From the IMG/VR virus record IMGVR_UViG_3300032323_001970, positions 1 to 54,880 of that record: a stretch of 54,880 nt of DNA, one strand, 5' to 3'. The translations under genes and the position numbers were made by a program. The stretch's first letter is position 1; each line of letters begins with the position of its first letter. The notes beneath the pieces are model-generated. The model was not told the origin of the DNA and searched no databases. It was given only the letters and a program-made list of their open reading frames with translations. Below, in pieces: positions 18,879 to 39,170 of the stretch. This DNA is from a virus.

Positions 18879-19045
18879 ATCAAATTCCCTATAGATGAGT
18901 TTTTAGGCCAAAACAGAGTGTATCAGTACTCTCTGTTTTGTCTTCGCGGATCCTTATGCTATCGAGCGAACGATAGCTTCTAGAGTTCTTTTTTGTACCA
19001 GTACACTCTGTTTTGGCTCTAAAAACACTCTATAGGATTTTTGGC
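18879..19045. promoter_or_regulatory. Inverted-arm control element, copy A (upstream of early operon)
   Basis: Two 41-nt arms (18889-18929 and 18995-19035) are near-perfect inverted copies, differing at about four or five positions. Each arm runs from CTATAG at the outer end through GCCAAAACAGAGTGTA to an inner GTAYYRRTAC. Outside the CTATAG boxes the sequence reads GGRATTTTTGG or close to it in both directions, so the arms extend about 10 nt further. The 65-nt centre has a hairpin, GCTATCG-AGCGAA-CGATAGC (18958-18977), and an extra CTCTGTTTTG (18931-18940). The whole element recurs at 37143-37305. It could be an operator pair, a replication origin, or back-to-back promoters. Confidence 0.75.
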
Positions 19046-19088
19046 TCTTTGGGCTGGTAAAAGTCCTAGCAACTATTTGCAAAAAACT

Positions 19089-19173: not shown

Positions 19174-20160
19174 ATGGCTCACGAAGTTGAAACGATGGCT
19201 TACGCCAATGAGACCCCTTGGCATGGCCTTGGCACCCCCGTCGCTGACAACCTGACCCCCGCCCAGATGCTTGATGCAGCTGGCCTCAACTGGAAAGTTC
19301 AAAAGAAGGCTCTGGTCGTTGACGACCTTGACCACGTCCTGACCAGCCACTACGCCCTGGTTCGCGACACGGACAGCAAGATCCTGGGCGTCTGCGGCAG
19401 CGAATACACGCCTACGCAAAACAGCGACGTCTTCGAGTTCTTCGAAAAGTTCTGCAAGGCCGGCGACATGAAGATGGAAACCGCCGGTTCCCTTTGCGAA
19501 GGCAAGCGCGTTTGGGGCCTTGCCAAGATCAACGGCGGCTTCATGCTGGGCGGCAAAGACGAAGTCGAGGGCTACATCCTCCTTGACAACCCCCACATCT
19601 GGGGCCGCAGCCTGCAGATCCTGTTCACCCCGATCCGCGTGGTTTGCAACAACACGCTGACGGCCGCTCTTCGGAACAATACGAACAAGGAAAACACTTT
19701 CCGCATGTCGCACGATCGCGCGTTTGACGACGAGATCAAGCAAACGGCAGCAGAAAAAGTCGGCCTTGCCATGAAGTCGCTAGACGTCTTCAAGCAGCAG
19801 GCCGAGTTCCTGTCCAAGAAGAAGGCCACGGACCAAAAGGTCATGGAGTTCTTCAGCAACTTGGTCAATCCCACCCAGTACCAAGCCGCTCTGGTCGATT
19901 CAGAAGCCGGCGAAGTCAACCGCGCAGATCTTGGCCGCACGGTCAACCGCCTGCTCGACATCGTGCACACCCAACCAGGAGCTGATCTGAAGACTTCAGC
20001 CGGAACCTGGTGGGGAGCATTCAACGCCGTGACGTACTACTACGACCACGTCGCCGGAACTGATCAGGACAAGCGTCTGACAAGCGCATGGTTTGGTTCA
20101 GCCGCCACCCGTAAGCGCCAAGCACTTGACCTCGCCGTCGAGTTCGCCGAAGCAGCCTAA
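19174..20160 (+). CDS. DUF932 / phage-plasmid-like protein (TIGR03299 type)
   Basis: This 328-residue protein opens with the family's usual beginning: MAYANETPWHGLGTPVADNL. Further family-like stretches are SHYALVRDTDSKILGVCGSE followed by YTPTQNSDVFEFFEKF, and ILFTPIRVVCNNTLTAAL. Members occur as early, highly expressed genes in many phages and plasmids. The biochemical role is not established; links to recombination or anti-restriction have been proposed. It is the first gene after promoter P1 and is followed by a UUCG hairpin, so it probably makes its own abundant transcript. SD-like AAAGAGAGAAA precedes the ATG. Confidence 0.88.
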   Translation: MAHEVETMAYANETPWHGLGTPVADNLTPAQMLDAAGLNWKVQKKALVVDDLDHVLTSHYALVRDTDSKILGVCGSEYTPTQNSDVFEFFEKFCKAGDMKMETAGSLCEGKRVWGLAKINGGFMLGGKDEVEGYILLDNPHIWGRSLQILFTPIRVVCNNTLTAALRNNTNKENTFRMSHDRAFDDEIKQTAAEKVGLAMKSLDVFKQQAEFLSKKKATDQKVMEFFSNLVNPTQYQAALVDSEAGEVNRADLGRTVNRLLDIVHTQPGADLKTSAGTWWGAFNAVTYYYDHVAGTDQDKRLTSAWFGSAATRKRQALDLAVEFAEAA

Positions 20161-20164
20161 AACC

Positions 20165-20182
20165 TAGGGGCTTCGGCCCCTA
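20165..20182 (+). terminator. UUCG-capped hairpin after DUF932
   Basis: TAGGGGC-TTCG-GCCCCTA forms a 7-bp GC stem with a UUCG tetraloop, directly after the stop codon. No T tract follows, so it may act as a partial terminator or an mRNA 3'-end stabiliser rather than a full stop. Confidence 0.6.
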
Positions 20183-20202
20183 CCTTCCCACTCTAGGAGA
20201 AC

Positions 20203-21060: not shown

Positions 21061-21062
21061 GC

Positions 21063-26740: not shown

Positions 26741-27510
26741 TGGTTAAGAAAACTGAAGTGGCTGTCGCACAGTCAACCGCCGTTGTGGCATTCGCAGACG
26801 ACATGATGGCAGACGCAGGTCTCGGTTTCGAGAACGTGTCCGCAAACGATGTCGCTATTCCGTACCTCAAGGTGTTGCAGGCCTTGTCGCCTGAACTTCG
26901 TGGAGTCACCAAGGTTGCTGGTGCTGAAGAGGGCCTGATCATCAACACCGTCACGGGTCAGTTGATGAAAGAGGCTCGCATCATCCCTTGCGCCTTTAAG
27001 AAGAGCTACGTTGAGTGGACTCCTCGTGAGGCCGGCGGCGGTTTGGTCAAGGAACACACGGATGAGCGCATCCTTGAAAAGACCAAGAAAAACGAACGCA
27101 ATCAAGACGTGCTGCCCAACGGCAACTTGATCGTCACGACTGCCTACCACTACGTGTTGGTGTTGGCCGAAGGCGGTTTTGAGCGCGCCCTGATTGCAAT
27201 GTCTTCGACGCAGCTGAAGAAGTCGCGCCGCTGGTTGGGCCAGATGATGAGCCTTCAAGTCAAGGTCGGCGACAAGTCGTTCACTCCGCCTCCCTTTAGC
27301 CATAGCTACCATGTGGGAACCGGCATGGAGACGAAAGACGCCAACAGCTGGTATGGCTGGCTGATCAACGATCCTAAGATGGTGCAAGACCGTGGCATCT
27401 ACGAGGCAGCTAAGAAGTTTGGCCAAGACGTAACTGCCGGCCTCGTTAAGGTCGCTGAGCCGCCTGCAGATGCTCCGACGGCGGCAGGAGAAGACGATGT
27501 CCCATATTAA
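26740..27510 (+). CDS. Single-stranded DNA-binding-like protein
   Basis: The protein has 256 residues. Central strands are beta-rich with aromatic residues (ARIIPCAFKKSYVEWTPRE, LIVTTAYHYVLVLAEGGFER). A basic segment (SSTQLKKSRRWLGQM) and a C-terminal acidic tail ending AGEDDVPY follow. A short acidic tail ending in an aromatic is typical of phage and bacterial SSBs, where it recruits polymerase or primase. Its place between polymerase and primase supports this. A classic OB-fold alignment could not be made by eye, so the call is by layout. AAAAGGAG precedes the ATG. Confidence 0.65.
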   Translation: MVKKTEVAVAQSTAVVAFADDMMADAGLGFENVSANDVAIPYLKVLQALSPELRGVTKVAGAEEGLIINTVTGQLMKEARIIPCAFKKSYVEWTPREAGGGLVKEHTDERILEKTKKNERNQDVLPNGNLIVTTAYHYVLVLAEGGFERALIAMSSTQLKKSRRWLGQMMSLQVKVGDKSFTPPPFSHSYHVGTGMETKDANSWYGWLINDPKMVQDRGIYEAAKKFGQDVTAGLVKVAEPPADAPTAAGEDDVPY

Positions 27511-27733
27511 AGACATCTTTCCGAGCCTTGGCATGGACCTTGGTAAGTCCGACGAACGGAATCCAAGCTCCACTAAAAAGGGCCCTGGACGCAAACACGC
27601 GCAAGGTGCGACAAAAGGTAAGTCCAAGGGATCTACCTACTTCAAGCGCTCTGCCGTGAATAGGGTCAAGGTCGCCCAGCAGACTGACAACGTGACGAAT
27701 ACTCCGTTGAAAGCTGCAACGCGCGGCGGTTAA
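27497..27733 (+). CDS. Small basic protein
   Basis: This 78-residue protein is Lys/Gly/Ser-rich (KKGPGRKHAQGATKGKSKGS), with a short helix at the start (MSHIKDIFPSLGMDLGKSD). It may bind nucleic acid. I do not recognise the family. The ATG has AGGAG upstream and overlaps the SSB-like gene by 14 nt. A UUCG hairpin follows the stop. Confidence 0.7.
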   Translation: MSHIKDIFPSLGMDLGKSDERNPSSTKKGPGRKHAQGATKGKSKGSTYFKRSAVNRVKVAQQTDNVTNTPLKAATRGG

Positions 27734-27736
27734 GTT

Positions 27737-27758
27737 GGGGGCGGCTTCGGCCGCTCCT
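27737..27758 (+). terminator. UUCG-capped hairpin upstream of the primase
   Basis: GGGGCGGC-TTCG-GCCGCTCC gives an 8-bp stem (one G-T pair) with a UUCG loop, right after the small basic protein. There is no T tract. It probably limits read-through or protects the upstream mRNA end. Confidence 0.55.
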
Positions 27759-27784
27759 CCTATCAACAACAACGAGAAAGAATT

Positions 27785-29308
27785 ATGCTTGCACAAAGAT
27801 TCATGGCGCTATTTTCCGGGCACACAGGTGCTTACGGGACCTATGACATCGATGGCAAGAATACTGGCCTGAAGGTTCAGGGGACAGCAGTCACAAAACG
27901 AGCAGCAGTAACAGAGCAGCTCTGGGACGGACACCTAGCTGGAACAAAGGGAATCGGTATTGTGCCAATCAGAGAGGACAACACATGCCTCTTTGGTGCG
28001 ATTGACATTGATGAATACAAGAATTTTGACCTGAAAGATGCCGTTGACGCTTGCGCCAAGGCCAAGGCACCGGTTGCAGTCTGCCGCAGCAAGTCTGGCG
28101 GCGCCCACATCTACATGTTTTTCAGCGAGCCGATACCGGCTGCTGATGTCAAACGAAAGCTTGGTGAATTGGCCAGCGTGATCGGCCACCCGAGTTGCGA
28201 GATTTTCCCTAAGCAAGATCAAGTGTTGTCTGAACGCGGTGACGTCGGCAACTGGATCAACATGCCTTACTTCGAAGGCGACCAGACCAGTCGCTATGGG
28301 GTTGCTGAAAACGGCAGCCCGATGCAGATCGAAGATTTTCTTACCTTTGCCGAAGGGCTCAAGCTTACCAGAGCCAACTTCGTGCGCCTTAAGTTTGCAG
28401 AAGCCAAGAGCAAGAAGCGGGCATTCAAGGATGCACCTCCATGTATCGAGAAACTGGCTCAGACAGGCTTCCCAGAAGGCACCCGCAACAACGGCCTGTT
28501 TAATCTGTGTGTGCTGGCACGCAAGATGAAACCCGATGATTGGCAGCCGCTGGTCATGCAGATGAACATCGATGTCATGGACCCGCCGCTTCCTGAATCT
28601 GAAGCCATGGGCGTCATCCAGTCCATGCAGAACAGCGACTATCAATACACGTGCAGCAGGCCTCCGTTACGGCCTAACTGCAATGCCGGCATGTGCCGCA
28701 TGCGCAAGTATGGCGTGGGCCAGCAGCAAGGGGCTCCAAGGCTTTCATCACTGAGCAAATACAACACCGAACCGCCGATCTGGTTCCTTGACATGGACAA
28801 CGGCATGCGCTTGTCACTGTCTACTGAGGACTTGCAGAACCAGTCAGGTTTCCAGAAGCGCTGCATGGAGGCCATGAACTACATGCCTCCCAAGATGAAC
28901 CTGACGCAGTGGAATCAGATGATCCAGGCTCTTCTTGCAGACGTGGTCGTCATTGAGGCTCCTGAGGACGCAAGCCCCAAGGGCCAGTTTATCGACCTGC
29001 TGGAACGTTTCTGCACCGGCAAGGCGCAGGCCAAGCACCTTGATGAGATCTTGCTGGGTAAACCGTTCCACGACCGTGACGAAAACCGCCACTTGTTTAG
29101 GCTGGCAGACTTCATCAATTTCCTCGACAAGCAGAAGTTCAAGGAGTTCAAGCTGAATCAGATCAGCTCAGCCATTCGTGACTACGGCGGCGAGACTCAC
29201 ACCTACAAGCTGAATGGCAAGCGGGCAACGGTCTGGTCTGTTCCTGCATTCTCATTCCAAGACAAAGGCCATCAGACTCCGGACTTTAACAGTGGAAGCC
29301 TCATCTAA
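27785..29308 (+). CDS. AEP-type primase
   Basis: This 507-residue protein has archaeo-eukaryotic primase catalytic features: CLFGAIDIDEYKNF (Asp74, Asp76), CRSKSGGAHIYMFF (SxSGGxH, His108), and EIFPKQDQV as the third acidic region. Residues around 285-310 contain a cysteine cluster (YTCSRPPLRPNCNAGMCRMR), probably a zinc-binding module. The C-terminal 150 residues are helical and could be a PriCT-like part. It would lay primers for the family A polymerase. The presence of an AEP primase instead of a T7-like primase-helicase defines the replisome type. AACGAGAAAGAA precedes the ATG. Confidence 0.82.
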   Translation: MLAQRFMALFSGHTGAYGTYDIDGKNTGLKVQGTAVTKRAAVTEQLWDGHLAGTKGIGIVPIREDNTCLFGAIDIDEYKNFDLKDAVDACAKAKAPVAVCRSKSGGAHIYMFFSEPIPAADVKRKLGELASVIGHPSCEIFPKQDQVLSERGDVGNWINMPYFEGDQTSRYGVAENGSPMQIEDFLTFAEGLKLTRANFVRLKFAEAKSKKRAFKDAPPCIEKLAQTGFPEGTRNNGLFNLCVLARKMKPDDWQPLVMQMNIDVMDPPLPESEAMGVIQSMQNSDYQYTCSRPPLRPNCNAGMCRMRKYGVGQQQGAPRLSSLSKYNTEPPIWFLDMDNGMRLSLSTEDLQNQSGFQKRCMEAMNYMPPKMNLTQWNQMIQALLADVVVIEAPEDASPKGQFIDLLERFCTGKAQAKHLDEILLGKPFHDRDENRHLFRLADFINFLDKQKFKEFKLNQISSAIRDYGGETHTYKLNGKRATVWSVPAFSFQDKGHQTPDFNSGSLI

Positions 29309-30800
29309 ACCCAAGATCATCCTGGGACCGCCCGGAACCGGCAAGACGACTACGTTGATGAACATCATCGAGTCGCTGCTGGAGAAGGGCGTTCGGCCTG
29401 AAGACATTGGCTTCATTAGCTTCACCAAGAAAGCTACAAATGAGGCTAGGGATAAGGCTCGTTCCCGGTTTGGTTTTGATGCAGATAGGCTTCCATTCTT
29501 CAGGACGATCCACAGCCTTGCGTTCAGGCAGCTGGGACTGAGTAGGCAGCAGGTCATGCAGCACAACCACTACCAAGAACTTTGCGATGAGCTGGGGGTT
29601 GAGATCACAGGGCGCCAAACTGGCGAAGACGGCACGTTGGTTGGTATGGCACAGGGTGACAAGCTGCGTTTTGTCGAAGGCATGGCAAGGATCCGGTGTG
29701 TGCCACTCAAGCAGCAGTGGGAAGAGTTAAATGACGACGATCTTGGCTGGTTTGAGCTGGAGCAGTTTGCAAAGGCTCTCAAGGAATACAAGGACAACTC
29801 TGGCCTGATCGACTACACTGACATGCTTGAGTTGATGCGGTCAGAAGGCTTCGTACCTAAATTAAAGGCTCTGCTGGTTGATGAGGCACAAGACCTATCA
29901 AAGCTGCAATGGTCCGTTGTTGAACGAATGATGGAGAAGGCAGATGAGACCTATATTGCTGGAGACGACGATCAGGCAATCTTTAGATGGGCTGGAGCAG
30001 ACGTTGATCACTTCATTGGCCTCGACGGGGACGTGCGTGTACTCGATCAGTCTTACCGGATCCCCTCCGTTGTTCACGATTTGTCCTTTGACATTATCAA
30101 AGCTGTATCTCGACGACGAGAAAAGCAATTCAAGCCAGCAGCCCATGAAGGATCTATCACCTACCACAACGACATCGAACACGTAGACATGGGCCAAGGA
30201 ACATGGCTCCTGCTTGCTAGGAATGTCTATATGCTCAGGGAAATGGTTGAGTTATGCCATCGTGAGGGCTACGCATACGAGTGTCAAGGAATGAGCCCTC
30301 GTAAGTCTGAGGCACTGCTGGCCATCAGGAGCTGGGAGAAGCTTCGCAAGGGCGACTTCATCCAAGCAGATCAACTGAAGCTGGTCTATGCTCACATGTC
30401 AAAGCGGATGGTCGATCACGGTCATCTGTCCTTGAAGACGTTGACAGAAGACATGGTCAACATGGACCTGCTGCAGCAGAAGTACGGGCTGCAGACCAAG
30501 GCCATCTGGCACACGGCTCTTGACCGCATCAGCGACGAGGAAAAGGAATACTTCCTTGCAGCCTTAAGACAAGGCGAATCGTTGTCAGGAGATCCACGGA
30601 TTACCATCAGCACGATCCACGGATCTAAAGGTGGTGAGGCTGACAACGTATTGCTGGTCACTGACATCAGTCCCAAGACCTACAACAGCTACCAAGAGAA
30701 TCAAGACGATGAGGTTCGCGTGTTTTACGTGGCAGCAACGCGGACCAAGAAGAACTTGCACATCATCACGCCGCGCACACAAAGGTACTTTGACTTATGA
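29292..30800 (+). CDS. Superfamily 1 (UvrD/Rep-like) DNA helicase
   Basis: The product is about 502 residues starting from a GTG inside the end of the primase gene; no ATG is available nearby. Motifs in order are Walker A LGPPGTGKTT (11-20), motif Ia GFISFTKKATNEARD, motif II LLVDEAQDLSKLQW (about 194-207), motif III AGDDDQAIFRWAGAD, motif IV LDQSYRIP, motif V STIHGSKGGEADNV and motif VI VAATRTKKNLHI. All catalytic motifs are intact. It unwinds DNA ahead of the fork or in recombination. It is shorter than E. coli UvrD (720), as is common for phage forms. Confidence 0.88.
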   Translation: MEASSKPKIILGPPGTGKTTTLMNIIESLLEKGVRPEDIGFISFTKKATNEARDKARSRFGFDADRLPFFRTIHSLAFRQLGLSRQQVMQHNHYQELCDELGVEITGRQTGEDGTLVGMAQGDKLRFVEGMARIRCVPLKQQWEELNDDDLGWFELEQFAKALKEYKDNSGLIDYTDMLELMRSEGFVPKLKALLVDEAQDLSKLQWSVVERMMEKADETYIAGDDDQAIFRWAGADVDHFIGLDGDVRVLDQSYRIPSVVHDLSFDIIKAVSRRREKQFKPAAHEGSITYHNDIEHVDMGQGTWLLLARNVYMLREMVELCHREGYAYECQGMSPRKSEALLAIRSWEKLRKGDFIQADQLKLVYAHMSKRMVDHGHLSLKTLTEDMVNMDLLQQKYGLQTKAIWHTALDRISDEEKEYFLAALRQGESLSGDPRITISTIHGSKGGEADNVLLVTDISPKTYNSYQENQDDEVRVFYVAATRTKKNLHIITPRTQRYFDL

Positions 30801-31432
30801 GCTTCCTAGTCGCAAACATCCCTCCCATAAAGTGCTTTGTTCGCAAAGAGTTTCTTTACAACCACGAATCCGGACATGGTGAGCTTGAGCCATGCGTGTG
30901 GATGACGGCCAAGGCCATCAAGGGCCAGGCATTCAGGATTGAATCCATGCTGACGAACTACGGAGCCTTGTATGACAAGCTCCCTATCAGCGCATACGTG
31001 TGGAAGCCGGTCGAAGAGCCGCTACCGCTTGACTTCCTGCAGATCTGGGATTGCTTGTCGTATGACATGGCAGTCATCGAGAAGTCAAACCTGCGGGGAC
31101 TCAAGGTCAAGTTCTTTGGCAAGGACAAGCAGTTCCATTTCGGCAACTACCTGTTCACCATTGACTTTGCAGCACCTGACACCAACCGCATCGACACCAG
31201 CTTCAGCGAAGGGGTTCAAGAGCATAAGAGCTACAACTTCATCCAGCTCGACAACGGCCAGTTCGCTTGCCAGCCCAACAACCGCTGCCTGTGGTACGAC
31301 GTGTCATTGGTCCCTGCAACCCTGAAGACCCCTGACTTCAAGATCCCGACCCAGGTCTACAGCGTCGAGAACCACGCCAAGTGGTCTGCCAAGGATGAGT
31401 GGTTCTACAGCTTCGAGGAGCTCAACAAGTGA
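30797..31432 (+). CDS. Unknown protein between the two helicases
   Basis: This 211-residue alpha/beta protein is rich in aromatic residues: PCVWMTAKAIKGQAFRIES, PISAYVWKPVEEPLPLDFLQ, FHFGNYLFTIDFAAPDTNRI, WYDVSLVPATLKTPDFKIPT. I do not recognise the family and see no catalytic signature. It overlaps helicase genes at both ends (ATGA and GTGA), so it is translated with them and may be a helicase partner. Confidence 0.78.
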   Translation: MSFLVANIPPIKCFVRKEFLYNHESGHGELEPCVWMTAKAIKGQAFRIESMLTNYGALYDKLPISAYVWKPVEEPLPLDFLQIWDCLSYDMAVIEKSNLRGLKVKFFGKDKQFHFGNYLFTIDFAAPDTNRIDTSFSEGVQEHKSYNFIQLDNGQFACQPNNRCLWYDVSLVPATLKTPDFKIPTQVYSVENHAKWSAKDEWFYSFEELNK

Positions 31433-32865
31433 TCGAATACAAGTACAAGACCAAGCCATTTGGTCATCAAGACATCGACTTCAAGCTCAGCCGGGACATG
31501 GACGAGTTCGCCTTGTTCTGGGAGATGGGCCTTGGCAAGTCAAAGACCACGGTCGACACTGCAGCATGGTTGTACGCGACGGGCAAGATCGACGCCGTGT
31601 TCATCCTGGGCAACAAGGGTTCATACCGCAACTGGGTGACCAAGGAGCTGCCAGAGCACATGCCTGACTACATCCAGTGGGTCGGCACGTACTGGGACAG
31701 CGCAGCAAACACCGAGCTCAAAAAGAGCTACGACCTGCTGCTAACGCCGATGGAACCCCTTAAGATCTTCGTCATGAACATCGAGGCCTTGGCTTTTGAC
31801 CGCAGCTACAAGATTGCCGAATCTTTTGTCAACTGCCACCGGACCCTGATGGTCATTGACGAATCGACCACGATCAAGAACAGGGACGCGAAGCGCACGA
31901 AGGCTGCAGTCAAGATCGGCCGCAAGGCCAACTATCGTCGGATCCTGACAGGGTCTCCAGTGACCAACAATCCCCTAGACCTGTTCAGCCAGGCCTGGTT
32001 CCTCAACCCTCACCTGCTGGGCTTCACCAGCTACTACACGTTTAGGGCAAAGTATGCAGAGATGGTCAAGATCACGGCGGGCAATCGCGCCTTCACTAAG
32101 GTCAAAGGTTTCAAGAACCTCGATGAGCTTACCCGGTCGATTCAGCGCTGGTCTTCGCGCCGCACCAAGCTTGAGTGTCTCGACCTTCCGGAAAAGATCT
32201 ACCAATACTACGAGGTTGAGCTTACAGACGAGCAGAAGAAGCACTACAAGACTCTTCGCGAGAAGGCTATGGCTGAACTGGAAGGCCAGTTGGTTTCAGC
32301 ACCGATCGTTCTTACGAAGCTGCTTCGATTGCACCAGTTGGTCTGCGGGCACCTCACAACGGACGATGGAACGATTGTTCCCGTCGAGAATAATCGGATG
32401 AAGGCACTCATGGAGGTGCTTGAAGAGGCCAGCGGCAAGGTCATCATCTGGGCCAACTACCGTCCAGACATTCAAGCCATTGAGGCAAAGCTGCAGGAAG
32501 AGTACGGCAAGAAGGCCGTCGTGTCTTACTACGGCAGCACGTCTAGCGAAGATAGGGCTGAAGCCGTTCGCAGATTTCAGCAGGACCCCGAATGCATCTA
32601 CTTTGTCAGCAACGCCCAGACCGGCGGCTTTGGCAATACGCTGACAGAAGGCACCAACGTGGTCTACTACTCCAACAGCTACAACCTAGAACACAGGCTG
32701 CAGTCAGAGGACCGTGCTCACCGTATCGGCCAAAAGCACGCGGTAACCTACGTGGACTTGATCAGCCGCAAGACCGTCGACGAGAAGATCGTCAAGGCCC
32801 TTCGCGACAAGAAGATGCTGTCATCCCAGGTGCTGGGTGACGAATGGAAGGAGTGGCTGAGTTAG
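31429..32865 (+). CDS. Superfamily 2 (Snf2-like) helicase
   Basis: This 478-residue product starts from a GTG overlapping the previous stop, with CGAGGAG upstream. Motifs are I WEMGLGKSKT (31-40), II VIDESTTIKN (about 142-151), III RILTGSPVTNNP, a long C-terminal RecA lobe with KVIIWANYRPDIQAIE, V SNAQTGGFGNTL, and VI SEDRAHRIGQKHAVTYVDLI. These mark the Snf2/Rad54-like group, which translocates on duplex DNA and remodels protein-DNA complexes. In phages it likely aids replication restart or recombination. It ends the long early operon. Confidence 0.88.
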   Translation: MIEYKYKTKPFGHQDIDFKLSRDMDEFALFWEMGLGKSKTTVDTAAWLYATGKIDAVFILGNKGSYRNWVTKELPEHMPDYIQWVGTYWDSAANTELKKSYDLLLTPMEPLKIFVMNIEALAFDRSYKIAESFVNCHRTLMVIDESTTIKNRDAKRTKAAVKIGRKANYRRILTGSPVTNNPLDLFSQAWFLNPHLLGFTSYYTFRAKYAEMVKITAGNRAFTKVKGFKNLDELTRSIQRWSSRRTKLECLDLPEKIYQYYEVELTDEQKKHYKTLREKAMAELEGQLVSAPIVLTKLLRLHQLVCGHLTTDDGTIVPVENNRMKALMEVLEEASGKVIIWANYRPDIQAIEAKLQEEYGKKAVVSYYGSTSSEDRAEAVRRFQQDPECIYFVSNAQTGGFGNTLTEGTNVVYYSNSYNLEHRLQSEDRAHRIGQKHAVTYVDLISRKTVDEKIVKALRDKKMLSSQVLGDEWKEWLS

Positions 32866-32957
32866 GTGTTGGTGGCTCCCATGAAGCAGGGTGGGGGCCG
32901 CAATTGAACAACTTAAAGACCCCACGGGGCTAATCCGTTTTCCACCAACGTTTGGCA
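32866..32957. other. Structured gap between convergent genes
   Basis: Outer inverted repeat GTTGGTGG (32868-32875) and CCACCAAC (32942-32949) enclose 66 nt. Inside, GTGGGG pairs with CCCCAC, CCC pairs with GGG around ATGAAGCA, and ACGG-GGCTAAT-CCGT is followed by TTTT. The pattern suggests a branched RNA or a two-way terminator between the rightward helicase gene and the leftward 62-residue gene. It lacks the T-loop consensus of a tRNA. Confidence 0.45.
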
Positions 32958-33146
32958 TTATTCCTTGATCCGCAGGAAAAAGGACATGAAAATGTCATTG
33001 TCCATAGTGCGCAGTGCGCTGCCAGGGAAGAACTGGTCAGGCCAGCCTTGCTCCTTGTCACTGAGGATGTACAGACGCATGTCGTTGTTGTACTCCAGGG
33101 ACATACCGTTCTCTTGGGCGATCTTTTTTGCTACAGCTACACGCAT
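32958..33146 (-). CDS. Small leftward protein of unknown function
   Basis: The protein has 62 residues: MRVAVAKKIAQENGMSLEYN, then NDMRLYILSDKEQGWPDQFF and a short C-terminal part. The start is supported by a perfect GAAAGGAG 6 nt upstream and by promoter P3. It is one of only two leftward genes, which suggests control separate from the early operon. I do not recognise the family. Confidence 0.75.
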   Translation of the reverse strand: MRVAVAKKIAQENGMSLEYNNDMRLYILSDKEQGWPDQFFPGSALRTMDNDIFMSFFLRIKE

Positions 33147-33168
33147 GGTGGGCTCCTTTCAAGCCCGC

Positions 33169-33197
33169 ATTTTACTACGTACTGCAGCAGTGCGCGC
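33169..33197 (-). promoter_or_regulatory. Leftward promoter P3 (GCGCGC-N17-TAAAAT)
   Basis: On the minus strand, GCGCGC (33197-33192) is followed after 17 nt by TAAAAT (33174-33169) and then GC, the same layout as P1 and P2. It is placed just upstream of the SD of the 62-residue leftward gene. Confidence 0.65.
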
Positions 33198-33394
33198 AAA
33201 TCTATATGTTTTTTACCTCATGTTATGCTGCCCAAGGGCACCGGATGGCACCCAGGCTCATCAGGTGAGCCCCAGTCATGATGGAATGGCTTGCGAATAG
33301 CAATCAATGGGCCATGAACAGAAAGCATCTCTGGGATCATCTAGGAGGACGGACCATTGCTAGTATTTGTCCCTGCAAATATTTTGCGACGAAT
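33198..33394. other. Intergenic core between divergent promoters P3 and P2
   Basis: No gene is visible here. It holds the 17-bp imperfect palindrome GGCTCATCAGGTGAGCC (33255-33271), also found inside the KS gene, and an AT-rich run (TATATGTTTTTTACC). The palindrome sits between the two divergent promoters, where an operator would be expected. Confidence 0.5.
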
Positions 33395-33423
33395 GCGCGC
33401 AGTGCGTAGTTTTGCACTAGAAT
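33395..33423 (+). promoter_or_regulatory. Rightward promoter P2 (GCGCGC-N17-TAGAAT)
   Basis: GCGCGC (33395-33400), 17 nt, then TAGAAT (33418-33423). The downstream block (ATGCACGGCA, then AAGAAAGAAGAAAG before the ATG) matches the P1 leader over about 100 nt. It drives the small-gene operon 33475-36559. Confidence 0.7.
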
Positions 33424-33474
33424 GCAGCTCATGCACGGCACCCCGCCTTGCTAAGAAAGAAGAAAGGTTTCATC

Positions 33475-33636
33475 ATGACTATCAATCAACAAGTCGTCGC
33501 CGAACTCAAAGAGCTGAAGAAGCTTGGTGTTCGCGTCAAGGCCAGCGTCATTAAGTCTGCAGAGACTGCCGACTTGAGCGAGTACGACAACATGCGCGTC
33601 AGCGAGATCGCAGATCTCTTGATCATGTTGGGCTAA
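33475..33636 (+). CDS. Small protein, first gene of the accessory operon
   Basis: The protein has 53 residues (MTINQQVVAELKELKKLGVR, ...YDNMRVSEIADLLIMLG), helical and amphipathic. The ATG follows the conserved purine-rich leader. I do not recognise the family. The length and first position after a strong promoter suggest an early host-takeover type product, but that is only positional. Confidence 0.7.
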   Translation: MTINQQVVAELKELKKLGVRVKASVIKSAETADLSEYDNMRVSEIADLLIMLG

Positions 33637-33646
33637 GGAGTACGAC

Positions 33647-33820
33647 ATGGAAATCACCGTCCGCATCACGTCTGTCTACGGCCAAAAGACCGTTTATCCA
33701 GTCTGCGAGACTGCAAAGATCTTCGCCGACATCGCTGGCACCAAGACTCTGAAGCCAACTACCATCAACTCGATCAAGGCTCTTGGCTACAAGATCGTCG
33801 TCGCACAAGAGGAGCTGTGA
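33647..33820 (+). CDS. Small protein, 57 residues
   Basis: The protein begins MEITVRITSVYGQKTVYPVC and continues ETAKIFADIAGTKTLKPTTI, then a basic end (KALGYKIVV). AAGGAG lies 6 nt upstream of the ATG. It probably has a beta hairpin followed by two helices. A related layout occurs in many phages, with function unknown. Confidence 0.7.
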   Translation: MEITVRITSVYGQKTVYPVCETAKIFADIAGTKTLKPTTINSIKALGYKIVVAQEEL

Positions 33821-33822
33821 TC

Positions 33823-34203
33823 ATGGAAGAACTGAAAAACTGGGAAGACATGACTCCCTTAGAGCAGGCGCAATGCACCTATTGGGACATGTACAAAGAC
33901 GCTCACGGCGTTCGACCCCGTGGTGTTGACACCAGCAGCTGGTCCCTGAAGGACTTCGAGATTGAATTTGACCGCCTTGGCAAGATCATCGAGGAAGACG
34001 AGCAGCAGCGCAAACAAGATGAGGCTGCCGCGATCGTAAGGTTTGAAGAGCGAGTGAAATCATTCATCGCAGCGGGCGCAAAAGATCGCGAGACCGTTCT
34101 CCGCTGGTTTCATGAAGCCGAACGGACCGACGGAGATGAAGAATTTCTTTGCTATTGCCTCGGCCTGCCTTATGGCTATTTCAAAAGATTGGAGACAGTA
34201 TGA
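33823..34203 (+). CDS. Conserved acidic helical phage protein
   Basis: This 126-residue protein reads TPLEQAQCTYWDMYKDAHGV, then RPRGVDTSSWSLKDFEIEFD and a long charged helix (GKIIEEDEQQRKQDEAAAIV). The YWDMYKDAHG/RP segment is familiar from small early proteins of aquatic podoviruses; function is not known to me. I chose the ATG with GAGGAG upstream over a GTG 6 nt before it. It overlaps the next start (ATGA). Confidence 0.78.
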   Translation: MEELKNWEDMTPLEQAQCTYWDMYKDAHGVRPRGVDTSSWSLKDFEIEFDRLGKIIEEDEQQRKQDEAAAIVRFEERVKSFIAAGAKDRETVLRWFHEAERTDGDEEFLCYCLGLPYGYFKRLETV

Positions 34204-34970
34204 GAATCGTTTGGACAAGAGATGAAAAGCGCGCGATGCGCGAGTGCATGATTGACTTGTGCTACGTGACGCCAAGTCTTAGCAACATAGGCCTGCTGCA
34301 GCATGCTCAAGAAGAGGTCATACCGTACGAGCGCCGCGTCAAAGTCAATCACCAGCGCGTCTTCAACTACAAGAAGTTGATCAACGAGGCGCGTGCAGCA
34401 GCTGACCAGCTTCGCCAAGCCGAGGCCAAGAAGCCAGTAGAAGCGCTAAAGAAGCCTGAGCCGCCGGCAGAGCCGCCGGCCCGCAAGCTAGATACGCTGG
34501 GCGAGGTCTTTGAGCTGTTCGTCGATGCCCTCGCTGACCGAATCATCCGGCGCCTTGAGGCCCGCCCGTTAGCAGCAAGGCCCGATGAGCCTCGCGAGCA
34601 CAAGCTTGAGGACTTTTTCGGCGGCGACCCAATGGAGCAGCTAGACAGGGTCTTCGACAGTCTGTATCCGCCCCTCAAGAAGGCGCCGATTCAGCCCCGC
34701 AAGCCCACCGTCCTGGTTATCGGCCTCAACGGCCACCAAATGGAGTGCATCAAGCAGTCGCGACCTGAGATAGACTTCACGTTCGTGACTGGCGAACAAG
34801 GCCTAAGCCACCAGACGCTGAACAAGGACCATACGATCCTGATGACCAAGTTCATCAATCACTCGGTTCAAGCTAAGTATCGCAAGCATCCCAACCTGCA
34901 CTACTGCAATGGCGGCGTCAGCGAACTGAAGCACATGCTGCAGATCATCTTCCACAAGGAGTACGCATGA
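34200..34970 (+). CDS. Two-domain protein with a Rossmann-like C-terminus
   Basis: This 256-residue protein has a helical N-terminal part with basic residues. A Pro/Ala/Lys linker follows (KKPEPPAEPPARKL), then an acidic helical piece (LEDFFGGDPMEQLDRVFDSL). The C-terminal approximately 85 residues (PTVLVIGLNGHQMECIKQSR, DHTILMTKFINHSVQAKYRK, LHYCNGGVSELKHML) resemble small Rossmann-like domains such as DUF2325, which often bind or sense nucleotides. The resemblance is by pattern only. Start ATG overlaps the preceding stop. Confidence 0.7.
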   Translation: MRIVWTRDEKRAMRECMIDLCYVTPSLSNIGLLQHAQEEVIPYERRVKVNHQRVFNYKKLINEARAAADQLRQAEAKKPVEALKKPEPPAEPPARKLDTLGEVFELFVDALADRIIRRLEARPLAARPDEPREHKLEDFFGGDPMEQLDRVFDSLYPPLKKAPIQPRKPTVLVIGLNGHQMECIKQSRPEIDFTFVTGEQGLSHQTLNKDHTILMTKFINHSVQAKYRKHPNLHYCNGGVSELKHMLQIIFHKEYA

Positions 34971-35137
34971 AGTACCTTAAAGCCTTTGCCCTCTGGGTCC
35001 TGCAAGGGACTATTGGCCTGATCTTGATGGGCTTCTTTGTCGTGATGGTCATGGAGTGGGCTGCCGGCTGCGGCGAGACGTATGTGGACTCCAAAGGCGT
35101 CACGCATCAGAACGAATGCATCTTCCTTAAGCGATGA
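34967..35137 (+). CDS. Small membrane protein, 56 residues
   Basis: One hydrophobic segment (about 6-30: AFALWVLQGTIGLILMGFFV) is followed by a short tail with three Cys (AAGCGETY, NECIFL). The tail would lie outside if the N-terminus is inside, and might form a disulphide. It has ATGA overlaps with both neighbours. No recognised family. Confidence 0.7.
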   Translation: MKYLKAFALWVLQGTIGLILMGFFVVMVMEWAAGCGETYVDSKGVTHQNECIFLKR

Positions 35138-35583
35138 ATGCGTTTCAGTACGGCGTCTTGAACGGACTTGGATGGATCGCTGTCTTAGTTGACGGCTGGA
35201 TCCTCCATACGCACTGGCTGGCAGCAGCCGGGTTTTTATTGCTCATTTGGAGCGCTTGGAAACTAATGAAGGAAGCAGACATGGCAGCAATCAATTCAGG
35301 ACTTAACGGAACAACGGCAGAAGACTTGGCTCAGGCAGCAAGCCCGTCGTACACATTTACAAGGACCAAGATGCCAGTCGGCGACATCAAGGTCTACGAG
35401 GGCGAGAAGTACTACAAGTTTGTGCCGAAAGAAGATATGACCGGTCAGGAAGCCGGCTGGATCTGCATGCTGTTCACGACTGCAGCCATCAGCAGCAGAG
35501 GAGTTGGCATCACGGACTACGACTACATGGGCTTTGTGCGGGCTCATGGACTCGAGCGCCATTTTGAGGAAGAGCTGTCGTGA
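35134..35583 (+). CDS. Membrane-anchored protein of unknown function
   Basis: The protein has 149 residues. The N-terminal 45 residues hold one or two membrane segments (YGVLNGLGWIAVLVDGWILH, WLAAAGFLLLIWSAWKL). The rest is soluble, with IKVYEGEKYYKFVPKEDMTG and a Trp/Cys-containing helix (GWICMLFTTAAISSRGV). An internal ATG (MAAINSGLNG, at 35281) has GAAGCAGAC upstream and could give a soluble 100-residue form. Function unknown. Confidence 0.7.
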   Translation: MNAFQYGVLNGLGWIAVLVDGWILHTHWLAAAGFLLLIWSAWKLMKEADMAAINSGLNGTTAEDLAQAASPSYTFTRTKMPVGDIKVYEGEKYYKFVPKEDMTGQEAGWICMLFTTAAISSRGVGITDYDYMGFVRAHGLERHFEEELS

Positions 35584-35813
35584 GGGGCCGCCGCTTTGAC
35601 GAAGACTATGACCCGGACCCGTATCCCGATGAGGGAGGCAAGTCTGGCTACTGCGCCCACTGCGGAGATGCTTGCACGGCCACCTTCATCGACGAAGGGA
35701 TCGGTCACTACGAGTATTGGGGAGCCAAAGGGGTTGACATCCAGCTCGTGGAGGTCAGTCCATGCTGCGAGGCCGAAGTGCTTGATGAACCACCTGAGGA
35801 GGACGAGGAATGA
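35580..35813 (+). CDS. Small acidic zinc-ribbon-like protein
   Basis: The protein has 77 residues from a GTG overlapping the preceding stop. Two cysteine pairs, YCAHCGDAC and SPCCEAE, could bind one zinc ion. Both ends are very acidic (DEDYDPDPYPDEGG, EPPEEDEE). It may mimic nucleic acid or bind a basic partner; function unknown. Confidence 0.68.
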   Translation: MRGRRFDEDYDPDPYPDEGGKSGYCAHCGDACTATFIDEGIGHYEYWGAKGVDIQLVEVSPCCEAEVLDEPPEEDEE

Positions 35814-36022
35814 CCCGAGAAGACATCCTGCGCATGGCACAAGAGGCTGACTACAACCCAAGAGACGGGGGAGTGTACAAGTTCGACAACTTTGACCTTG
35901 AACGCTTCGCCGCCCTTGTCGCCGCAGCAGAGCGCGAGGCGTGTGCGAAGGTGGTTGAAGATTCCGACACGCGATGGCTTGGCGTTATTGCCGCCGCCAT
36001 CCGAGCAAGGGGGCAAGCATGA
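35810..36022 (+). CDS. Small helical protein ending RARGQA
   Basis: This 70-residue protein reads MTREDILRMAQEADYN, then LERFAALVAAAEREACAKVV, and ends in IRARGQA. The middle helix pattern (ERFAALVAAAEREACAKV) is common in small phage and prophage proteins of Burkholderiales and relatives. It ends in the 21-nt repeat shared with the next gene. Confidence 0.72.
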   Translation: MTREDILRMAQEADYNPRDGGVYKFDNFDLERFAALVAAAEREACAKVVEDSDTRWLGVIAAAIRARGQA

Positions 36023-36192
36023 CAGATCGTTGCAACCACGATTGGGCACGCTACAACCGTTTTTGGTTTGATGGGCGAATTTGTTACAGATGCTTCAAGT
36101 GCGGCGAAGAGGTGACAGAAATTGAAGGGAAAGAGATACCGCAAATTGAAGCCAAGATCGTCGAGGCCCGTCGAGCAAGGGGGCAAGCATGA
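36002..36192 (+). repeat. 21-nt direct repeat at two gene junctions
   Basis: The stretch beginning CGAGCAAGGGGGCAAGCATG occurs at 36002-36022 and again, identical over 21 nt, at 36172-36192, exactly 170 nt apart. Each copy encodes the end RARGQA plus the next gene's overlapping ATGA. The repeats bracket one complete small gene like a cassette. Confidence 0.8.
36019..36192 (+). CDS. Small zinc-finger-like protein ending RARGQA
   Basis: The protein has 57 residues (MTDRCNHDWARYNRFWF, then ICYRCFKCGEEVTEIEGK). Cys5/His7 and CxxCxxC could bind zinc. The C-terminus ARRARGQA is shared with the preceding, otherwise unrelated gene. The stop overlaps the next ATG. Confidence 0.7.
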   Translation: MTDRCNHDWARYNRFWFDGRICYRCFKCGEEVTEIEGKEIPQIEAKIVEARRARGQA

Positions 36193-36299
36193 ACACTTGG
36201 CCCTTCCCACCCCCAACGGGTCCTGTCCCATGGACACCTAAACAGAAGCAAGAATACGAGCGCAAGCAGCGTCAACAACTACCAGAGGCCCCACTATGA
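36189..36299 (+). CDS. Very small proline-rich protein, 36 residues
   Basis: It reads MNTWPFPPPTGPVPWTPKQK and then a charged helix (EYERKQRQQ). It has ATGA overlaps at both ends. The WPFPPP/GPVPWTP style recurs in small phage proteins near terminase modules. No function known. Confidence 0.6.
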   Translation: MNTWPFPPPTGPVPWTPKQKQEYERKQRQQLPEAPL

Positions 36300-36559
36300 A
36301 AGACTGGATCAAACGAATCTTTGGCGGTGAGGAAATCCCTGACCCGGCACCAAACACGGACCTGTCGGCAACCGACGACTACGTTGTGGTCAAGAAAAAG
36401 GATCTGGACGACCTGATCGCCGAGCTGCAAAACCTGCGAAACCAAAAGGTCGACACCGACGCCAGGGAACTAGACATGATGGTGGCCGAACTTGAGCATG
36501 AAAATAAGCTGCTGCGAGCCAGAAACGAACGCCTGGAGGCTGAAGCCAAGCTACAATGA
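36296..36559 (+). CDS. Coiled-coil protein, last gene of the accessory operon
   Basis: The protein has 87 residues. A short amphipathic N-terminus (MKDWIKRIFGGEEIPDPAP) precedes a strong coiled coil (about 33-87: KKKDLDDLIAELQNLRNQK, ELEHENKLLRARNERLEAEA). It is probably oligomeric. A strong terminator follows 36 nt downstream. Confidence 0.72.
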   Translation: MKDWIKRIFGGEEIPDPAPNTDLSATDDYVVVKKKDLDDLIAELQNLRNQKVDTDARELDMMVAELEHENKLLRARNERLEAEAKLQ

Positions 36560-36595: not shown

Positions 36596-36621
36596 AAGGG
36601 GGCCTCACAGCCCCCTTTTTT
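36596..36621. terminator. Strong Rho-independent terminator between converging units
   Basis: AAGGGGGC-CTCACA-GCCCCCTT is an 8-bp stem followed by TTTT. It stops the rightward accessory operon; its tail overlaps the stop codon of the leftward regulator gene, so it may serve both directions. Confidence 0.85.
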
Positions 36622-37060
36622 ATTCCTCGCGGTCGCGTACCTTGCAGCCAAGATCTACCGGATCCATCTTGAGGTAACTGAAGACGGCCTTACGACGTTG
36701 GTCTGACTTAGCCGTGCCGCAGTTGGGGCAGCCATGACCGCACACCGAGCAAAAAGCCGGTGGACTTTCAAAAGCGCGGATCACCCGACGCTTATGCTCC
36801 TCACGGCAATGCTCAAGCCACTTGGCCCTCCAGCCACGAATCGCGATCAGCTCATCGATCTTATCAATCACGTGCTGCGTGACCTTCCGGCCCTTGATGG
36901 CGTTAAAGAAGGTGCCGCGACTGAGGTCTAAGCCGTCCTCAGCTTCCTTGTCGTACAAGCGGCTGATGTTCGGCTGCCCGGTTCCATGCTCACTGGCCCA
37001 GACGATGATCTTGACGGTGTCGAGGTCAAGGGGAGATGTTGCTTCGATTGGTCGGCTCAT
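36620..37060 (-). CDS. Leftward putative DNA-binding regulator with a Cys4 motif
   Basis: The protein has 146 residues, starting MSRPIEATSPLDLDTVKIIV (ATG at 37060; AGAAAGAAG upstream, the same leader as in P1 and P2). Residues about 30-70 (NISRLYDKEAEDGLDLSRGT, then FFNAIKGRKVTQHVIDKIDE) look like a helix-turn-helix region. A basic patch follows (WLEHCREEHKRRVIR) and then Cys104-x2-Cys107-x3-Cys111-x2-Cys114, likely a zinc site. Divergent placement next to inverted-arm element B suggests it controls that element and perhaps its twin at 18.9 kb. The assignment as regulator is an inference. Confidence 0.68.
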   Translation of the reverse strand: MSRPIEATSPLDLDTVKIIVWASEHGTGQPNISRLYDKEAEDGLDLSRGTFFNAIKGRKVTQHVIDKIDELIAIRGWRAKWLEHCREEHKRRVIRAFESPPAFCSVCGHGCPNCGTAKSDQRRKAVFSYLKMDPVDLGCKVRDREE

Positions 37061-37093
37061 GATGCATTCTTCTTTCTGAGTGGTTGGGATTAG

Positions 37094-37099: not shown

Positions 37100-37142
37100 C
37101 AGCAATCTGTGCAAGTTATGCTATGTTCGGGGAGCCAGGAGG

Positions 37143-37305
37143 ACCAAAAAAGCTATAGATGATTTTTAGAGCCAAAACAGAGTGTATTGATACAACCTTT
37201 TTGCAGACGCGAGATTTAGAGACGAGCGAACGATAGTAGAAATAGTTTTTAATTGTATTGATACACTCTGTTATGGTCTAGAAATCATACTATAGGGAAT
37301 TTGGG
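37143..37305. promoter_or_regulatory. Inverted-arm control element, copy B (upstream of terminase)
   Basis: Arms 37153-37193 and 37255-37295 are imperfect inverted copies with CTATAG at the outer ends, AACAGAGTGTAT inside and TGTATTGATACA at both inner ends (37183-37194 and 37254-37265). The centre contains CGAGCGAACGATAG, identical to the 14-mer at 18963-18976 in copy A. Outside the right arm CTATAGGGAATTTG matches the outward reading of the left arm of copy A. It lies between the leftward regulator and the packaging operon. Confidence 0.75.
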
Positions 37306-37312
37306 CCGCTAT

Positions 37313-37371: not shown

Positions 37372-37698
37372 ATGCCATTCCAAAAAGGTGTGAAGCCGGA
37401 AGGCTCTGGGCGCAAAAAAGGTAGCCAGAACAAGCGCAACATTCAACGGCAAGAGATCTTTGACCGGATCGTCGAGAAGCATGGTGACCCACTCGAGGCA
37501 CTGGCTGAGATGGCCTTTGACCCGAACCACGACCTGCTGGTCCGCAAAGACTGCCTCAAGGAGCTGGTGCAGTATGGCCACGCCAAGAAGAAGTCGGTCG
37601 AGATTACCGGACCTGATGGCGGTCCCATCGAGGCGCGGCTCGAGCTGGTCGGCCAGATCACCGACCTCATCGGCAAGCTGAACGCTGGCGGCAAATGA
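37372..37698 (+). CDS. terS: Terminase small subunit
   Basis: This 108-residue protein opens MPFQKGVKPEGSGRKKGSQN, a basic AT-hook-like stretch common in phage small terminases. Helices follow (RQEIFDRIVEKHGDPLEALA, DLLVRKDCLKELVQYGHAKK). The gene overlaps the large-subunit gene by 4 nt, the usual pairing. It would recognise the packaging start site on concatemeric DNA. The packaging type cannot be decided here. Confidence 0.78.
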   Translation: MPFQKGVKPEGSGRKKGSQNKRNIQRQEIFDRIVEKHGDPLEALAEMAFDPNHDLLVRKDCLKELVQYGHAKKKSVEITGPDGGPIEARLELVGQITDLIGKLNAGGK

Positions 37699-39170
37699 TC
37701 CTTTCTAAGGCCGAGCTAACCACCATCCAGTCCAACCTTTCGGTGCTGGAGCTGGAGGACCTTGCCCATATCGCCTGGAAGCTGAAGTGGAAAGCAACGG
37801 CTCGTGAGCAGCAGATCACGCCGCCTGGTGATTGGGGCATCTGGTTGATCTTGGCGGGTCGTGGCTTTGGCAAGACCAGGACAGGAGCCGAGGACATCGG
37901 GAACTATGCTGCGGACAATCCTGGGGTTCGCTGTGGAGTTATTGCACCAACGTCTGCTGACATTAGGGGCGTTTGCTTTGAGGGTGACTCGGGACTCATG
38001 GGGGTCATCCCTCATTACCTGATTGACAACTACAACAGGTCCATCGGCGAGATCACCCTGAAGAACGGGTCATCGATCCGCGGCTTCTCAGCCGAAGAGC
38101 CCAGTCGTTTGCGCGGTCCCCAGTTCCACCGCGTTTGGTGCGATGAGCTGGCTGCTTGGCAGTACTGCGAAGAGACCTGGGACATGATGCGGTTCGGTCT
38201 TCGCTTGGGCGACGATCCACGGGTCATCATCACCACGACTCCAAAGCCCATCGAGCTAGTCCGTAAGCTGTTGAAGGATGCTGAGAAAAAGAACAGCCGC
38301 GTCATCGTTACCAGGGGATCTACCTATGACAATGCAGCGAACCTCGCAAAGTCCTTCCTTGCTGAAATCACACAGTACGAAGGCACGCAGCTCGGACGAC
38401 AAGAGATCCATGCCGAGGTTATTGATCCCGAAGAGACCGGCATCATCAAGCGAAGTTGGTTCAAGCTCTGGCCAGCCGATAAGCCTTTGCCCGCCCTTGA
38501 CTACATCGTCATGAGCCTTGACACGGCGTTCACGGAGAAGTCCGTCGACCGCAAGAGCCACGATCCAGATCCAACCGCGTGCTCGGTCTGGGGCGTCTTC
38601 CGCCACGAAAAGAAGCCAGCCTTCCTGCTGCTTGACTGCTGGCAAGACCACCTTGGACTGCCGGCCCTGATCGAACGGGTCAAAAAGGAATGGCAGGTCA
38701 GGTACGGCGACGAGGACTTCAGGCCGATAATCAAGCCCCTGGTCGGGCCAAAACAGTCCATGTTCGGCGGTAAAGCCCCAGACCTAATGATCATCGAGGA
38801 CAAGGGATCTGGTATTAGCCTGCGCCAGATGCTGGCCCGTGAGGACATCCTGGCATACCCATACAATCCGGGCCGCGCGGATAAGCTGCAACGGCTCCAC
38901 GCGGTATCGCATTTATTTGCACACGGATTTGTTTGGGTTGTAGAATCTGATAAACGGCCTGGGAATCCACGTTCCTGGGCTGACCCATTAATCTCGCAGC
39001 TGTGCAGTTTCCACGGTGAAGGCTCAATTAAGCATGACGACTTTGTTGATTCGACGACTCAAGCACTCAGGTTGCTTGCCGATCGCAATAGTCTCTCAGT
39101 CACCAGGAAAGTGCCAGACAAAATTGAACGGGACAGCAGGCCGAAGCTTGTGAACCCTTACGCGATCTAA
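37695..39170 (+). CDS. terL: Terminase large subunit
   Basis: This 491-residue packaging motor has ATPase Walker A LAGRGFGKTRTG (53-64), Walker B HRVWCDELAAW (Asp150, Glu151) and coupling motif TTTPKP (180-185). The nuclease domain starts at VMSLDTAF (Asp276), with acidic residues later near IIEDKGSG. It uses ATP to pump DNA through the portal and cuts concatemers. The length is typical. It is first among the late genes with TerS. Confidence 0.93.
   Translation: MILSKAELTTIQSNLSVLELEDLAHIAWKLKWKATAREQQITPPGDWGIWLILAGRGFGKTRTGAEDIGNYAADNPGVRCGVIAPTSADIRGVCFEGDSGLMGVIPHYLIDNYNRSIGEITLKNGSSIRGFSAEEPSRLRGPQFHRVWCDELAAWQYCEETWDMMRFGLRLGDDPRVIITTTPKPIELVRKLLKDAEKKNSRVIVTRGSTYDNAANLAKSFLAEITQYEGTQLGRQEIHAEVIDPEETGIIKRSWFKLWPADKPLPALDYIVMSLDTAFTEKSVDRKSHDPDPTACSVWGVFRHEKKPAFLLLDCWQDHLGLPALIERVKKEWQVRYGDEDFRPIIKPLVGPKQSMFGGKAPDLMIIEDKGSGISLRQMLAREDILAYPYNPGRADKLQRLHAVSHLFAHGFVWVVESDKRPGNPRSWADPLISQLCSFHGEGSIKHDDFVDSTTQALRLLADRNSLSVTRKVPDKIERDSRPKLVNPYAI

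What the first reader, a model, noticed from the sequence alone, without database searches (positions are those of the whole stretch)
37143..37305. Second copy of the inverted-arm element beside a divergent regulator
Copy B shares the outer CTATAG boxes, the AACAGAGTGTAT arms and an identical CGAGCGAACGATAG centre with copy A 18 kb away. Here TGTATTGATACA is repeated exactly at both inner arm ends. It sits between a leftward gene with an HTH-like and Cys4 motif and the packaging operon. The two copies could let one regulator switch early and late transcription, or could mark the ends of a recombining or replicating unit.
Basis: partly seen in the sequence, partly recalled or inferred. Interest (0 to 1): 0.78.

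Follow-up and report, generated by a model that had tools for sequence, protein, structure and literature searches.

The report
Paired control sites for phage regulator
A little-known family of uncultured tailed phages carries two copies of a 160-base two-armed DNA site at the borders between its early and late genes, and the sites have evolved in step with one phage DNA-binding protein, which makes that protein the likely reader of both sites although what they switch on is not yet shown.

Summary
Copy B (37145-37304) and copy A (18881-19044) are one element: two outward-facing arms around a CG-rich core. All ten genomes holding both module borders have exactly two copies, at the same two borders, 16-21 kb apart. 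The arm is an operator (GTAYYRATACACTCTGTTWTGG) plus an invariant TATAG-N4-TTTG box, about 33 bp apart. Only the operator varies with the 146-aa HTH/zinc protein (REG, 36623-37060, minus strand): REG divergence predicts operator divergence at B and at A, 18 kb away (partial r 0.64, p 0.0005), unlike 14 other genes. Near relatives lacking REG lack the element; a 32%-identical REG keeps the architecture with changed operators. So 'one regulator reads both copies' is well supported. Recombination between copies is not: gene order never changes. My best mechanism (0.43) is REG-dependent outward promoters, serving the early operon (A right), the late operon (B right) and the reg operon (B left). 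The conserved left arm of A faces a convergent gene end in all 22 loci, which this does not explain. A pair of replication origins bound by REG is the main rival (0.30). DNA binding, transcription and replication were not measured.

The parts
37145..37304 (.). Element B as a whole (CAAAAA...TTTTG-type ends, two outward arms, core), between the leftward reg gene and terS
37145..37202 (-). B left arm, reads outward to the left: box CTATAG 37153-37158, operator core TGTATTGATACA 37183-37194, CACTCTGTTTTGG (minus strand) 37172-37184
   Evidence: R1 half-site match 37142-37204 minus, E 2e-20; logo
37223..37236 (+). Core repeat CGAGCGAACGATAG, identical to A; an ACGAACGA-type core is kept even in relatives with a 32% identical REG
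37253..37304 (+). B right arm, reads outward to terS: operator core TGTATTGATACA 37254-37265, CACTCTGTTATGG 37264-37276, box CTATAG 37290-37295
   Evidence: R1 match 37240-37306 plus, E 2e-15
18881..18940 (-). A left arm, outward to the left, box CTATAG 18889-18894; near-perfect palindrome AAAACAGAGTGTATCAGTACTCTCTGTTTT 18910-18939
18963..18976 (+). A core repeat CGAGCGAACGATAG
18993..19044 (+). A right arm, outward to the early operon: TGTACCAGTACA 18994-19005, CACTCTGTTTTGG 19004-19016, box CTATAG 19030-19035
36620..37060 (-). reg: 146-aa protein, XRE/POU-like HTH N-terminal domain plus CxxC...CxxC zinc motif; inferred binder of all four arms
   Evidence: AlphaFold2 pLDDT 87.5; co-evolution; presence/absence
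36596..36617 (+). Intrinsic-terminator-like hairpin closing the early operon, convergent with reg
37372..37698 (+). Small terminase-like gene (first late gene, phrog_15261)
   Evidence: position just before terL
37695..39170 (+). Large terminase
19174..20160 (+). DUF932 / TIGR03299 gene, first gene of the early operon, right of A

Best explanation
The element is a two-copy, two-armed control site for the phage protein REG. Shown by sequence comparison: each arm joins a REG-specific operator to an invariant outward TATAG-N4-TTTG box at fixed spacing (about 33 bp centre to centre, within 1 bp). Inferred: a REG dimer binds the operator through its HTH domain. It then recruits or positions host RNA polymerase on the TATAG box (about -10 to +1, which would put the operator near -43), so that each copy is a pair of divergent REG-dependent promoters. 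B right serves the late/packaging operon, B left the reg operon itself (autoregulation), and A right the early operon. In this way one protein coordinates both halves of the genome. The A left arm would make an antisense or primer transcript.
For: Exactly two elements, each with two outward arms, in all ten genomes that hold both borders. Logo: TATAG and TTTG are 100% conserved, with the operator at fixed distance. REG divergence best predicts operator divergence at A (partial r 0.64, permutation p 0.0005) and at B (0.85) among 16 tblastn frames shared by 10 genomes; small terminase 0.10/0.16, TerL and DUF932 negative. In 38 loci, REG partial r is 0.60 (p 0.0005) given TerS and TerL. REGs with GRGTF[FY][GS] in the HTH helix go with TGTAT operators, and SRGTFFN REGs with other, mostly GTT-type, operators at B. 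TATAG boxes, unlike operators, are not genome-specific, so a constant factor reads them. REG has an XRE/POU-like HTH fold, and a distant REG hits a DksA-like zinc finger (E 0.004). The three arms B left, B right and A right point at operons. In relatives B left points at a leftward p208-reg gene pair.
Against: The A left arm faces the 3' end of a convergent large gene in all 22 A loci, sometimes overlapping its stop codon, yet stays conserved. TATAG[GC] is a poor sigma-70 -10 hexamer, and no -35 is conserved. Separate -10-like sequences (TAGAAT, TACAAT) lie downstream of A and B at varying distances. No transcript data exist.
Confidence: 0.43

Rival explanations
1. A and B are a pair of bidirectional replication origins. 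REG is the origin-binding initiator that binds the inverted arms and opens the AT-rich DNA outward on both sides; the CGAACGA core takes a second factor.
For: A and B are the two least stable 160-bp stretches of the whole genome in 6 of 7 genomes (in the seventh B is first and A third). Both arms are kept at A where no gene could use the left one. Core orientation is free. The initiator-like gene lies beside one copy. ICP1 is a precedent for two origins, one late and near the packaging site (PMC7145576).
Against: Fourfold-site GC skew shows no step at A, and only a modest change at B. REG matches no known initiator family. No DnaA boxes were seen by eye; not scanned systematically.
Confidence: 0.3
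2. REG is a repressor. Bound at A and B, it shuts early, late and reg promoters (immunity or timing); the operator blocks RNA polymerase at the -35 region.
For: XRE/lambda-repressor-like HTH; operator sits where a -35 would be; same spacing at all arms implies the same effect at all.
Against: No integrase or other lysogeny gene was seen among the proteins scanned. No REG relative was found in 84,980 bacterial and archaeal genomes with the patterns used.
Confidence: 0.13
3. Packaging (pac/cos) site recognised by the small terminase.
For: B lies just upstream of the small terminase-like gene, a common place for such sites (general knowledge; position).
Against: TerS divergence does not follow element divergence (partial r 0.10/0.16; 0.08 in 38 loci); a second full copy lies 18 kb away; REG fits far better.
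Confidence: 0.06
4. Recombination or inversion element, or a mobile MITE-like repeat.
For: Inverted arms; the B core is reversed in a sublineage (G005, G016, L023, L041, L046).
Against: Same two positions in all relatives, never elsewhere; gene order never inverted; all 27 stretches carrying the type-I half-site pattern among 2.9 million viral contigs lie on contigs of this family by contig identity.
Confidence: 0.04
5. RNA hairpin or cruciform formed by the arms.
For: 24-nt arms are 88% complementary in B.
Against: Arms within one element are no more alike than arms of different elements in the same genome (0.276 vs 0.258), so no pairing constraint; no Rfam match for A.
Confidence: 0.02

Closest known systems
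Activator-dependent phage promoters (class II activators; phi29 p4 early/late switch)
   Same: A phage DNA-binding protein with inverted operators at fixed distance from a start-site box, next to early and late operons and its own gene (comparison from general knowledge)
   Different: Here four identical outward arms form two mirror-image elements; the box is TATAG-N4-TTTG, not TATAAT; one arm has no gene to serve; REG is unrelated by sequence to known families
Lambda-type replication origin (O protein, iterons, AT-rich tract; PMC7466680)
   Same: Phage-encoded binder near its own gene, repeated sites, AT-rich easily melted DNA
   Different: Inverted outward arms instead of iterons, two copies per genome, no initiator homology, no skew switch at A
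T7-like single-subunit RNA polymerase promoters (TATAGGG box)
   Same: CTATAGGG box with AT-rich upstream part
   Different: No single-subunit RNA polymerase found in the genome; extra co-evolving operator upstream
ICP1 replication (theta origin plus a late origin near the packaging end; PMC7145576)
   Same: Two proposed start regions, one near packaging genes
   Different: No sequence relation tested; ICP1 start regions were inferred from read depth, ours are not mapped

Membership tests
Activator-dependent (class II) phage promoter | Operator at fixed distance upstream of the -10 box | tested here: met
   About 33 bp centre to centre, within 1 bp, in the aligned half-sites
Activator-dependent (class II) phage promoter | Recognisable -10 hexamer (TATAAT-like) | tested here: inconclusive
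   TATA invariant but followed by G and G/C, no T at position 6; consensus scan finds none of the boxes
Activator-dependent (class II) phage promoter | Cognate activator binds the operator | tested here: inconclusive
   Co-evolution and co-occurrence with REG; binding itself not testable here
Activator-dependent (class II) phage promoter | Transcript starts just downstream of the box | not testable with these tools
   No RNA data
XRE/lambda-repressor-like HTH regulators (REG) | Five-helix HTH fold | tested here: inconclusive
   AlphaFold2 pLDDT 87.5; best PDB matches are POU-specific/XRE domains, Z 3-4.8 over about 65 residues; no Pfam, PHROG or NCBIfam hit for the window protein
Phage replication origin | AT-rich, least stable DNA next to binding sites | tested here: met
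   A and B are the two least stable 160-bp stretches in 6 of 7 genomes
Phage replication origin | Skew switch at the site | tested here: not met
   No step at A, modest change at B in fourfold-site skew
Phage replication origin | Copy-number peak or autonomous replication | not testable with these tools
   No reads or plasmids
Terminase pac/cos site | Recognised by TerS (co-evolution expected) | tested here: not met
   Partial r 0.10/0.16 and 0.08
T7-like RNAP promoter | Single-subunit RNA polymerase encoded by the phage | tested here: inconclusive
   No family hit in the proteins scanned and no motif in the large proteins; the PF00940 whole-genome search had silent controls
Invertible or recombining element | Rearranged forms among relatives | tested here: not met
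   TerL and DUF932 keep the same relative strand in 10/10 genomes; only the B core is reversed in one lineage

The most novel reading that the evidence does not exclude
A and B are paired bidirectional replication origins of a new kind: mirror-image arms bound by a new HTH/zinc initiator (REG), one at the head of the early genes and one beside the packaging genes, possibly with outward transcripts priming both directions.
Probability: 0.28. Interest if true: 0.7.

Novelty: new variant of a known kind. Interest (0 to 1): 0.5.

Why it matters
It gives a likely binding partner (REG) and a defined, family-wide DNA target to a group of uncultured phages known from metagenomes, whose gene control and replication are unknown. 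The natural swap of REG helix type together with operator type, also at the unlinked copy, gives a ready set of REG/operator pairs for testing how an HTH protein changes specificity. The strict two-copy, mirror-image design at both genome-module borders is unusual and makes a sharp test possible: promoter pair or origin pair.

Tried and rejected
Single-subunit RNA polymerase promoters: no polymerase found (the PF00940 search had silent controls, so absence is not proven). RNA hairpin/cruciform: no pairing constraint between arms of one element and no Rfam match for A. Packaging site: TerS does not co-evolve. MITE or mobile element: fixed positions, family-restricted half-site pattern. Invertible segment: never inverted. 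GC skew as origin evidence: total skew is higher in the early arm in 7/7 genomes, but binned fourfold-site skew shows no step at A, so it is not used as support. L038 first looked like an element without reg; its leftward p208 gene normally sits between B and reg, and the contig ends before reg would start. A first half-site pattern had the wrong spacing; two distance scripts failed before the working one, and one gave invalid values. In one search some right-arm extractions (L015, L022, L030, L042) picked the wrong place, which adds noise to that test. REG search of bacterial genomes: none. REG in cultured phage records: none. Foldseek against PDB gave no significant match. Literature searches found no description of such an element. 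Contigs without the element (G012-G015) have TerL at 73% and no REG, so they cannot say what replaces it.

Full report
The window is a whole IMG/VR virus record of 54,880 bases. It is a tailed phage. Genes 19174-36559 form a replication/nucleotide operon (DUF932, PolA, Pam3-like proteins, AEP primase, UvrD-like and SNF2-like helicases). The packaging/structural operon starts at 37372 and runs through the record's end to 18865 (terminase, portal, capsid, tail, ejection-like proteins). Apart from reg, the recognisable genes lie on the plus strand.

CTATAG is found only at the four stated places, and the shared arms and core are there. Their similarity is far above shuffles. The two copies sit exactly at the two borders between the operons: A between the end of the late operon and the first early gene, B between the reg gene and the small terminase-like gene.

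Relatives. A TerL scan brought in 80 loci, a DUF932 scan 79 and REG scans 24 and 48. A 65-position half-site model finds exactly two elements of two outward arms in each of ten genomes that hold both borders (G000, the window itself, and G001, G002, G004, G005, G006, G009, G011, G016, G018). Across 66 sources it gives 142 matches, including some partial inner ones. The arm consensus is GTAYYRATACACTCTGTTWTGGCT-AAAAA-CTATAG[CG]G-TTTTG; TATAG and TTTG are invariant. In A the left arm is close to a full palindrome. The length between the two boxes varies by several bases, so the arms do not keep a fixed helical phase to each other.

REG and the element. REG is beside B, or separated from it by a leftward p208 gene, in every element-bearing locus where the contig is long enough. 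The element-free contigs with TerL at 73% lack it. Two contigs with a REG only 32% identical (L064, L066) keep the two TATAG-type boxes and an ACGAACGA core with quite different operators.

Co-evolution. For 16 tblastn frames shared by 10 genomes, the divergence matrix of each was compared with that of the operators, with the mean of the other frames held constant. REG ranks first for A (partial r 0.64, permutation p 0.0005) and for B (0.85). The second-ranked frame (36822-37079) is the antisense frame of REG itself, so 15 independent genes were compared. A lies 18 kb from reg, and the gene next to A (DUF932) shows nothing, so linkage does not explain it. With 38 loci, REG remains significant given TerS and TerL (0.60, p 0.0005), while TerS and TerL do not. 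All seven REGs with GRGTF[FY][GS] in the predicted HTH helix go with TGTAT operators, while SRGTFFN REGs go with other, mostly GTT-type, operators at B. In G005 and G016 the change is also present at A. One partial exception: A of G004 has TGTAT with an SRGTFFN REG. The TATAG boxes do not follow this pattern, so something constant reads them. The numbers are modest (10 genomes) and pairwise distances are not independent; the permutation p is conditional on that.

REG fold. AlphaFold2 on 36 relatives gives pLDDT 87.5. Foldseek finds weak HTH/XRE matches in BFVD, and one near-identical uncultured phage protein; VIA-align gives POU-specific/XRE domains at Z up to 4.8, which is weak. The zinc part of the distant REG hits a DksA-like zinc finger at E 0.004, also weak.

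What it does. Three of four arms point at operons: A right at the early operon, B right at the late operon, B left at reg (or p208-reg). An operator at fixed distance from an invariant outward box is what an activator-dependent promoter looks like, and this is my best explanation at 0.43. Against it, the A left arm faces the end of a convergent large gene in all 22 A loci and even overlaps its stop codon in some, yet stays conserved. Also the box is a poor sigma-70 -10, and other -10-like sequences lie downstream at varying distances. A mirror-symmetric role such as a replication origin would explain the A left arm, the free core orientation, and why A and B are the least stable DNA of the genome in 6 of 7 genomes. 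But fourfold-site GC skew gives no step at A, and REG resembles no initiator found here. I put the origin reading at 0.30.

Readings set aside are listed with evidence under rivals and Tried and rejected: repressor, packaging site, recombination element, RNA hairpin.

Novelty. The type-I half-site pattern occurs in 27 stretches among 2.9 million viral contigs, all on contigs of this family. REG is absent from annotated cultured phages at the sensitivity used, and literature searches found no description. It is a new variant of a known kind (phage regulator with its sites), with an unusual two-copy mirror design. What is shown is co-evolution and conserved anatomy; binding, transcription and replication are inferred.

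Noticed in passing
L009 start, L013 start; also L007, L011, L014, L028, L034, L052, L054: Contig ends cluster within or close to element B; two different contigs start one base apart in the right arm. It may be an assembly artefact of the repeats or AT-rich DNA, or real DNA ends.
   Followed up: no
B core in L112 (G005), L099 (G016), L023, L041, L046: The core between the arms of B is reversed relative to other relatives and, where A is known (G005, G016), to A of the same genome, in the lineage with GRGTF[FY][GS] REG.
   Followed up: partly
19049-19116: Between A and DUF932 a conserved CTGGTAnAAGTCCYAGC inverted repeat and a TAGAAT -10-like hexamer with no clear -35; function unknown.
   Followed up: no
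L018:3739-4362 (minus) and relatives: A 208-aa leftward gene (p208) lies between B and reg in many relatives but is missing there in the window; it also occurs in element-free relatives (L072-L074, L076, L113, L116).
   Followed up: partly
14669-18862: The 1398-aa last late gene evolves very fast among relatives (30-60% identity where DUF932 is above 80%), and in some relatives the frame running into A ends inside its left arm.
   Followed up: no
30797-31429: Strong match to the PHROG family annotated as ferredoxin (phrog_3704, E 2e-85) inside the replication operon.
   Followed up: no
34149-34967: 273-aa early protein whose N-terminus looks, by eye, like a DNA-binding domain; no Pfam, PHROG or NCBIfam hit.
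   Followed up: no
L099-L101 (G016): TerL is split over both ends of the 57,746-base contig with about 40 residues repeated, so the assembly is circular or terminally redundant.
   Followed up: no
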